Assembly (NCBI GenBank): GCA_003223515.1
Contig: QHVI01000016.1
Coordinates: forward strand, 1-64,000
DNA from: Candidatus Angelobacter sp. Gp1-AA117
GTDB lineage: Bacteria; Acidobacteriota; Terriglobia; Terriglobales; Acidobacteriaceae
Direction of reading: 5' to 3'
Length of the DNA stretch: 64,000 nt
Below, one piece after another: positions 58,225 to 59,950 of this stretch. A program made the position numbers and the translations under genes. The notes under the pieces are model-generated. The model saw nothing but the letters and a program-made list of their open reading frames with translations. It searched no databases and was not told the origin of the DNA. The stretch's first letter is position 1, and every line of letters starts with the position of its first letter.

Positions 58225-58522
58225 AGGAAACTAGGTTTCTCATAACGATCATCGGAAAGTGGCGAATCTATTCCACTGGATATATAATGCCTTGTTTTAT
58301 TAGGTTAAATGCCTGATATCTTTCAGCTTTGTTAAAAAGATAGAATCTCAAGCCAATCATAGGTAGGGAAGTAGATTGGAATTCAGTTTGTCTGAGTTGT
58401 TCCAAAATGGGAATGCATTTCAAAATATTGGAATTTTTTTAAGCAAAACTATCATTATTGGATTTTAATAGGCACTCATGTACTCCACTGATCAGGCGAC
58501 GGCACCCACGCAAAGGACTACC

Positions 58523-59950
58523 ATGTCAATCCTATTGGCAGACGATGATGTTCATCTGGCTACCTTCCTTTCCAAATCTTTGGAATCGGAAGGGTATTCG
58601 GTTCACACGGCGCTCGACGAAGAAAGTGTTCTGGCTGAACTCCGGCGGCAAAACTACAAATTGATTATCCTTGATCTAAACTTCGGCCAGACAGATGGTC
58701 TGAAACTACTGGAGAAACTAAGATCAGAGGGGCTGGCTACACCCGTAATGGTGCTCAGCGCCCGCAATAAAGTTTCTGACCGCATTCAATCGCTGAACCT
58801 GGGCGCCGATGACTACGTCACCAAGCCTTTCTCCTTTCAGGAACTGGCGGCGCGCGCCAATGCCCTGCTGCGCCGTAAATCCGATCCGGCGCTCAACGTA
58901 TTGCGCGTGGAAGACCTGGAACTCGACCCGGCCTTGCGCAAAATCAGCCGCAACGACCGGGACATCAAGCTGAGTCCGAAAGAATTCGACCTGTTGCACC
59001 TGCTGATGCGCCGTTCTGGACACACCGTGACGCGCCACGAACTACTGCAGCAGGCCTGGGGACTGCAGCCGGAATCCGACAGCAACCTGGTCGATGTCTA
59101 CGTCAACTATCTGCGCAAAAAAGTGGATGCGTCGAACGAAGAGAAGTTGATTCATACAGTCCGCGGATCTGGATATCGAATCGGGCGTCCTGCGCCAACG
59201 GCCCATTCGGCAGAGATGGGGGCAATGACTTTTGAGCCTTCCCATAGCAAGCTGTCGGGCCAGTCGCCGCAGATTTATGCTGCGGAACCGGCCATGGTTC
59301 AGCAGACGCCCTGGCGTGCCCTGGTAAACTCTGTTGCTCACGACCTGGCCCAGCCACTCACCAGCGTGCGCTGCTTCCTTGAAGTGGCTGCCATGCGCAA
59401 CAGTACTGTTTCCATAGCCAACAGCGACCTCAAAAATATTGAACAGCAGGCTGACCGGGCCATCGCTCTGGCCAAAACTATTTCTTCATTGGTGCGCGAA
59501 ATCTCTGTGCCTACCGGCCCGTGGGTTTTGCTCGACTCGCTGATGGACGAGGTCTTCAATGACTTCGTGGTGCTGCTGCACTCCGGCATGCTCACGCTGG
59601 AGCGCCAGTGGGACCTTTCCATTCAGATCACCAGCAGTCCGGTGCTGCGCCAGTTACTGGTGCTGCTGATCGGCAAGCTGATAGGAAAGAACACCCGGCC
59701 GCTGATCCTGACGGTTACCTCAAGCATGAAGAGCGGGCGTTGCAACCTCGGTCTGCGCTGGGCAGCCACAGATCAAGGTCCCGTACAGGATCCCAAAACT
59801 GTCCTGGGCAAAGAACTCATGCACATCCAGGAGATGGTCTACTCCATTGGCGGCGAACTGCATCCCGAAGGCGAAAACGAGTTCATCCTGAGGCTGCCGG
59901 CCGCGCCCCAGCCCAACATGGGCGGCCCAGGCAAAGAATTGCTGCAGTAG
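58523..59950 (+). CDS. Response regulator fused to OmpR-type DNA-binding domain and a degenerate histidine kinase
   Basis: 475 residues from ATG 58523 (AAAGGA 5 bases upstream; an earlier ATG lies at 58478). Residues 1-120: receiver (LLADDDVHL, phospho-Asp in LILDLNF, Lys in TKPFSF). 125-220: winged helix of the OmpR/PhoB family (RKISRNDRDIKLSPKEFDLLHLLM, VDVYVNYLRKKVD, IHTVRGSGYRIG). About 270-345: HisKA-like helix pair with SVAHDLAQPLTSVRCFLEVA. About 350-465: an HATPase-like fold in which the N-box Asn (here LLIGKLIGK) and the DxGxG box are lost. The order REC-wHTH-HisKA-pseudoATPase is unusual. It is monocistronic. Confidence 0.88.
   Translation: MSILLADDDVHLATFLSKSLESEGYSVHTALDEESVLAELRRQNYKLIILDLNFGQTDGLKLLEKLRSEGLATPVMVLSARNKVSDRIQSLNLGADDYVTKPFSFQELAARANALLRRKSDPALNVLRVEDLELDPALRKISRNDRDIKLSPKEFDLLHLLMRRSGHTVTRHELLQQAWGLQPESDSNLVDVYVNYLRKKVDASNEEKLIHTVRGSGYRIGRPAPTAHSAEMGAMTFEPSHSKLSGQSPQIYAAEPAMVQQTPWRALVNSVAHDLAQPLTSVRCFLEVAAMRNSTVSIANSDLKNIEQQADRAIALAKTISSLVREISVPTGPWVLLDSLMDEVFNDFVVLLHSGMLTLERQWDLSIQITSSPVLRQLLVLLIGKLIGKNTRPLILTVTSSMKSGRCNLGLRWAATDQGPVQDPKTVLGKELMHIQEMVYSIGGELHPEGENEFILRLPAAPQPNMGGPGKELLQ

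What the first reader, a model, noticed from the sequence alone, without database searches (positions are those of the whole stretch)
58523..59950. Reversed-order two-component fusion: receiver, DNA-binding domain, then HisKA with a broken ATPase
A classic OmpR/PhoB-type regulator (receiver plus wHTH) carries a C-terminal HisKA-like helix pair with an intact His (SVAHDLAQPLTSV) and an ATPase-like domain that has lost the N-box Asn and DxGxG. A transcription factor with a C-terminal pseudo-kinase could use the His as a phosphate sink, a dimerisation switch or a docking site for another kinase. I know of no characterised example of this order.
Basis: partly seen in the sequence, partly recalled or inferred. 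Interest (0 to 1): 0.7.

Follow-up and report, generated by a model that had tools for sequence, protein, structure and literature searches.

The report
Gene switch fused to pseudo-kinase relay
A bacterial DNA-binding switch protein carries on its tail a dead sensor kinase that keeps its phosphate-accepting histidine; in related genera the same two parts are two neighbouring genes, often at the head of the flagellar genes, so the tail is most likely a built-in phosphate relay or eraser for the switch.

Summary
Window 58523-59950 (+) is one 475-aa ORF: receiver, OmpR wHTH, HisKA-like hairpin with His273, ATPase-like domain lacking the N, G1 and G2 boxes. It is not an assembly fusion. Seven of the nine genus genomes held carry it full length under purifying selection; one contig ends inside it, and one keeps only the C-terminal half at the same place. 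In other genera of the family the parts are two adjacent, often stop-start-overlapping genes: all 32 small pseudo-kinases examined directly follow an OmpR regulator. About ten of these pairs head a flagellar cluster: pair, HTH-less sigma-54 activator, often a PAS kinase and NtrC-like regulator, then flgB-flgC-fliE-fliF. Across 40 C-terminal halves His and Gln(+4) are invariant, while the acidic +1 residue and ATP motifs are not kept. A confident model keeps the Bergerat fold. Best reading: a Spo0B/ChpT/PhyT-type pseudo-kinase, probably relaying phosphate to the receiver and possibly removing it, fused to its regulator. Biochemistry is untested. New variant of a known kind; the conserved pair matters more than the fusion.

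The parts
58523..59950 (+). Whole gene, 475 aa plus stop (alternative upstream ATG at 58478)
   Evidence: start chosen from orthologues
58529..58858 (+). Receiver domain (residues 3-112)
   Evidence: Pfam Response_reg E 1.8e-26
58673..58675 (+). Phospho-acceptor Asp51 codon
   Evidence: sequence; invariant in fused orthologues
58958..59182 (+). OmpR-type winged helix DNA-binding domain (residues 146-220)
   Evidence: Pfam Trans_reg_C E 6e-26
59189..59299 (+). Fast-evolving linker (residues 223-259)
59309..59500 (+). DHp-like helical hairpin (residues 263-326)
   Evidence: HisKA match; model helices
59339..59341 (+). His273 codon, invariant phospho-acceptor candidate
   Evidence: 40/40
59351..59353 (+). 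Gln277 codon (His+4), invariant, phosphatase-type position
   Evidence: 40/40
59516..59908 (+). Pseudo-ATPase (CA-like) domain, residues 332-462, ATP motifs lost

Best explanation
The protein is an OmpR/PhoB-type response regulator translationally fused to a pseudo-histidine kinase of the Spo0B/ChpT/PhyT kind. The C-terminal half dimerises as a DHp four-helix bundle, cannot use ATP, and uses His273 to take phosphate from another receiver (of a hybrid kinase or single-domain regulator) and pass it to Asp51 of the receiver in the same protein, switching DNA binding on; the invariant Gln277 could let the same hairpin run the reverse or phosphatase reaction. Shown here: architecture, conservation of His/Gln with loss of ATP motifs, genetic linkage of the two parts, purifying selection, fold. 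Inferred: dimerisation, phosphotransfer, direction, donor, targets.
For: His 40/40 and Gln(+4) 40/40, against Asp/Glu at +1 in only 13/40 and loss of the ATP boxes: selection keeps the phospho-acceptor hairpin, not autokinase. All 32 small pseudo-kinases follow an OmpR regulator 45-50% identical to the window's, several with GTGA/ATGA overlap. Fused, unfused-paralogue and split regulators form one clade, 99/95. omega about 0.01-0.23 in the structured parts of the fused gene. CA fold kept, Z 15.0. Precedents: ChpT, an HK-like dimer that does not autophosphorylate and phosphorylates the DNA-binding regulator CtrA (PMC3433190); PhyT, a degenerate HK encoded at the phyR locus that transfers phosphate from SdrG to PhyR (PMC5898713).
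Against: No phosphotransfer data. No donor kinase is evident next to the fused gene. No member matches Pfam HPTransfase (ChpT family). In one species the C-terminal half persists without its receiver, so cis transfer is not essential there. A phosphatase-only role fits the invariant Gln equally well.
Confidence: 0.5

Rival explanations
1. Phosphatase or phosphate sink: the hairpin removes phosphate from the fused receiver (through Gln277, or by back-transfer to His273), keeping the regulator off until an unknown condition changes the pseudo-ATPase domain.
For: Gln at His+4 is invariant in 40/40, the position of the Thr/Asn/Gln that HisKA phosphatases use (general knowledge); fusion to the receiver favours a cis reaction; the acid at +1, used in kinase activity, is not conserved.
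Against: A pure phosphatase would tolerate loss of His in some of 40 diverged copies, and none has lost it. PhyT, first called a phosphatase, proved to be a phosphotransferase in vitro (PMC5898713).
Confidence: 0.27
2. Dimerisation or docking module: the hairpin only holds two regulators together or recruits a partner kinase, without phosphate chemistry.
For: Fold retained; DHp hairpins dimerise (general knowledge); the half persists alone in G184.
Against: Does not explain invariant His and Gln in stand-alone copies.
Confidence: 0.17
3. Still an ATP-dependent kinase by a non-canonical site.
For: Some split members keep the N-box Asn (4 of 32) and 8 of 40 members match HATPase_c weakly.
Against: Fused copies have Lys for the N-box Asn and Trp for the G1 Asp, and no G2 box.
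Confidence: 0.04
4. Assembly or frameshift artefact joining two genes.
For: In other genera the parts are two adjacent genes.
Against: Same frame in seven genomes of the genus, with selection across the whole frame.
Confidence: 0.01

Closest known systems
ChpT (Caulobacter crescentus histidine phosphotransferase; partner CtrA)
   [quoted passage not shown] CckA-ChpT-CtrA controls flagellar genes in several alphaproteobacteria (PMC3433190, PMC3692519)
   Different: Stand-alone, not fused; none of these proteins matches Pfam HPTransfase, while 37 of 40 match HisKA
PhyT/PhyP (Sphingomonas melonis)
   Same: Histidine kinase with degenerate ATPase domain, encoded beside its response regulator, transfers phosphate from a single-domain regulator (PMC5898713)
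LvrB and other Rec-controlled histidine kinases (hybrid response regulators)
   Same: Receiver N-terminal to DHp and CA in one chain (PMC13269768; found by fold search)
   Different: Active CA, no DNA-binding domain in between
OmpR/PhoB response regulators
   Same: N-terminal 220 residues are a complete member
   Different: Extra 250-residue C-terminal pseudo-kinase

Membership tests
OmpR/PhoB response regulator | Receiver with acidic pair, phospho-Asp, Ser/Thr and Lys | tested here: met
   D8/D9, D51, S79, K101 invariant in fused orthologues
OmpR/PhoB response regulator | Trans_reg_C winged helix after the receiver | tested here: met
   E 6e-26, above cut-off, though not at the C-terminus here
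Pseudo-HK histidine phosphotransferase (Spo0B/ChpT/PhyT type) | DHp hairpin with conserved His | tested here: met
   40/40; helical hairpin in the model
Pseudo-HK histidine phosphotransferase (Spo0B/ChpT/PhyT type) | Kinase-like CA domain that has lost the ATP site | tested here: met
Pseudo-HK histidine phosphotransferase (Spo0B/ChpT/PhyT type) | Dimer through DHp | not tested
   only monomer models were made
Pseudo-HK histidine phosphotransferase (Spo0B/ChpT/PhyT type) | Phosphotransfer Asp-His-Asp without ATP | not testable with these tools
   needs biochemistry
ChpT family (Pfam HPTransfase PF10090) | Match to the HPTransfase profile | tested here: not met
   none of 40 members at E 0.1
Canonical HisKA histidine kinase | HATPase_c with N, G1 and G2 boxes | tested here: not met
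Rec-controlled HK (LvrB type) | Rec followed by an active DHp-CA | tested here: not met
   the order is met but with a wHTH between, and the CA is degenerate
Hybrid histidine kinase | Kinase core N-terminal to the receiver | tested here: not met
   reverse order

The most novel reading that the evidence does not exclude
A previously undescribed pseudo-kinase phosphotransferase lineage, paired with an OmpR-type regulator and placed at the head of many flagellar clusters in one bacterial family (an analogue of ChpT-CtrA), has in one genus fused with a copy of its regulator into a one-chain DNA-binding phosphorelay terminus that outlived the flagellum.
Probability: 0.45. Interest if true: 0.72.

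Novelty: new variant of a known kind. Interest (0 to 1): 0.55.

Why it matters
If true, a ChpT-CtrA-like arrangement (degenerate-kinase phosphotransferase plus OmpR-type regulator tied to flagella) exists outside the alphaproteobacteria as a separate degeneration of a HisKA kinase. The lineage shows graded loss of the ATP site (four members keep the N-box Asn), which makes the question of how kinases become phosphotransferases testable. The fused protein gives a single-chain system for measuring His-to-Asp transfer and dephosphorylation by an ATP-dead hairpin.

Tried and rejected
Assembly fusion: rejected by seven genomes. Other fusions: longer open frames in G669, G637, G545, G649 and G084 were read and are overlapping or N-filled split pairs. 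Distribution outside the family: at E <= 1e-26 over 297 genomes of the phylum only three weak hits lay outside the family, full-size kinases with canonical motifs; at 1e-27 no hit outside the family among 249 genomes of the order. ChpT family by Pfam: no match; ChpT is also not among the rows shown, which excludes nothing. Strict flagellar role: not supported; the window genome (scored 100% complete) has no FliF or FliE hit, and by hand count about half of the genomes with a split pair have FliF, against 93 of 200 overall. No relative covering 80% of the protein among the best 5000 plasmid records. The full-length model (mean pLDDT 64) is too poor for domain-interface claims. Remnant of the receiver upstream of the lone C-terminal gene in G184: none found. 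Attempt to name the organism through a neighbouring gene: uninformative.

Full report
What is there. Window 58523-59950 (+) encodes one 475-residue protein. Pfam gives Response_reg 3-112, Trans_reg_C 146-220 and HisKA 265-323, the last 1.5 bits under its cut-off, and nothing over the last third. That last third folds with high confidence (block pLDDT mostly 93-97) as a Bergerat ATPase domain: 119 residues at 2.1 A and Z 15.0 to the ThkA CA domain. The Asn of the N box is Lys, the Asp of G1 is Trp, and the G2 box is absent in all fused copies.

Is it real. The genus has nine genomes in the collection. Seven, the window's included, carry the full frame (regulator part 76-85% identical to the window's, C-terminal part 58-64%), all beside the same aldehyde-dehydrogenase-like gene and most also beside a YjbQ-like gene (families were clustered here, their names read from sequence). 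In G583 the contig ends inside the gene. In G184 only the C-terminal half stands at the same place, and it branches inside the fused clade (97/92), so the regulator half was lost there; no remnant was found. For the closest pair (dS about 0.36) omega is 0.02 in the receiver, 0.06 in the wHTH, 0.15 in the hairpin, 0.11 in the pseudo-ATPase and 0.25 in the linker.

Where it comes from. In other genera of the same family the C-terminal part is a separate gene of about 215-270 residues. All 32 such genes examined directly follow an OmpR-type regulator that is 45-50% identical to the window's regulator half, in several cases with GTGA or ATGA stop-start overlap. A search of 398 family genomes found over 50 genomes of other genera with small pseudo-kinases, and full-length fusions only in this genus (longer frames checked). 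The regulators of fused, split and unfused-paralogue type form one clade (99/95), with the fused ones on a long stem beside the unfused genus paralogues (88/81). In the C-terminal tree the 11 canonical kinases lie apart on one branch (97/95). Species G153 is informative: it is flagellated, and a cluster there has the regulator, the sigma-54 activator, a PAS kinase and an NtrC-like gene but no pseudo-kinase, while the fused gene lies elsewhere. The simplest history is duplication, fusion and relocation in the genus ancestor; this order of events is inferred.

Context. In about ten genomes the split pair heads a flagellar cluster: regulator, pseudo-kinase, a sigma-54 activator with a degenerate receiver and no HTH, often a PAS kinase and an NtrC-like regulator with a Fis HTH, then flgB, flgC, fliE and fliF. 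In several further genomes only the activator remains beside the pair. The window genome, scored 100% complete, has neither FliF nor FliE, so the fused protein has some other target there.

How it probably works. Over 40 C-terminal halves, His and Gln at His+4 are invariant, Pro +5 likewise, and Cys +11 is kept in 37; the acidic residue at +1 is present in only 13. Four split members keep the N-box Asn and 8 match HATPase_c weakly, so the family shows graded decay of a former kinase. This is the pattern of pseudo-kinase phosphotransferases: ChpT (PMC3433190), Spo0B and PhyT (PMC5898713, which itself places the three together as degenerate kinases). I therefore favour a relay end: unknown receiver-P to His273 to Asp51 to DNA binding (0.5), with phosphatase or sink (0.27) and dimerisation/docking (0.17) as rivals. 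Reaction, direction and donor are inferred, not shown.

Compared with the known. Rec-DHp-CA chains exist (LvrB, PMC13269768) but are active kinases without a wHTH. ChpT and PhyT are not fused to their regulators. The ChpT-CtrA pair also controls flagella (PMC3692519), a parallel in function; Pfam does not place these proteins in the ChpT family. I found no paper in the searched library describing this pair, which covers open-licence papers only and was searched by title and abstract of the top hits. I rate the finding as a new variant of a known kind: the conserved pair is the more interesting object, and the fusion is its lineage-specific form.

Noticed in passing
L162:6198-7394, L161:6509-7660, L163:5734-7062, L167:6168-7457: Sigma-54 activators beside the split pairs have a degenerate or unrecognisable receiver and an AAA+ domain but no HTH; the neighbouring OmpR regulator might supply DNA binding.
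   Followed up: partly
window about 58397-58407: A GTTC(C/T)A(A/G)AAT-like block roughly 100-125 nt before the start is the clearest conserved stretch in the leader of the seven fused genes (GTATTCCAGAGTT in L011); the window also has an imperfect TTCCAAAAT/ATATTGGAA inverted repeat there. Possible regulatory site.
   Followed up: partly
window 59372-59374: Cys at His+11 of the DHp helix is kept in 37 of 40 pseudo-kinases and absent in the 11 canonical kinases compared; possible redox or packing role.
   Followed up: no
L155:7643-8302: A species of the genus keeps only the pseudo-kinase half at the syntenic place, so it can persist without its fused receiver.
   Followed up: partly
L235:80-4825: In flagellated G153 the regulator, sigma-54 activator, PAS kinase and NtrC-like genes are present but the pseudo-kinase gene is missing between regulator and activator.
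   Followed up: partly
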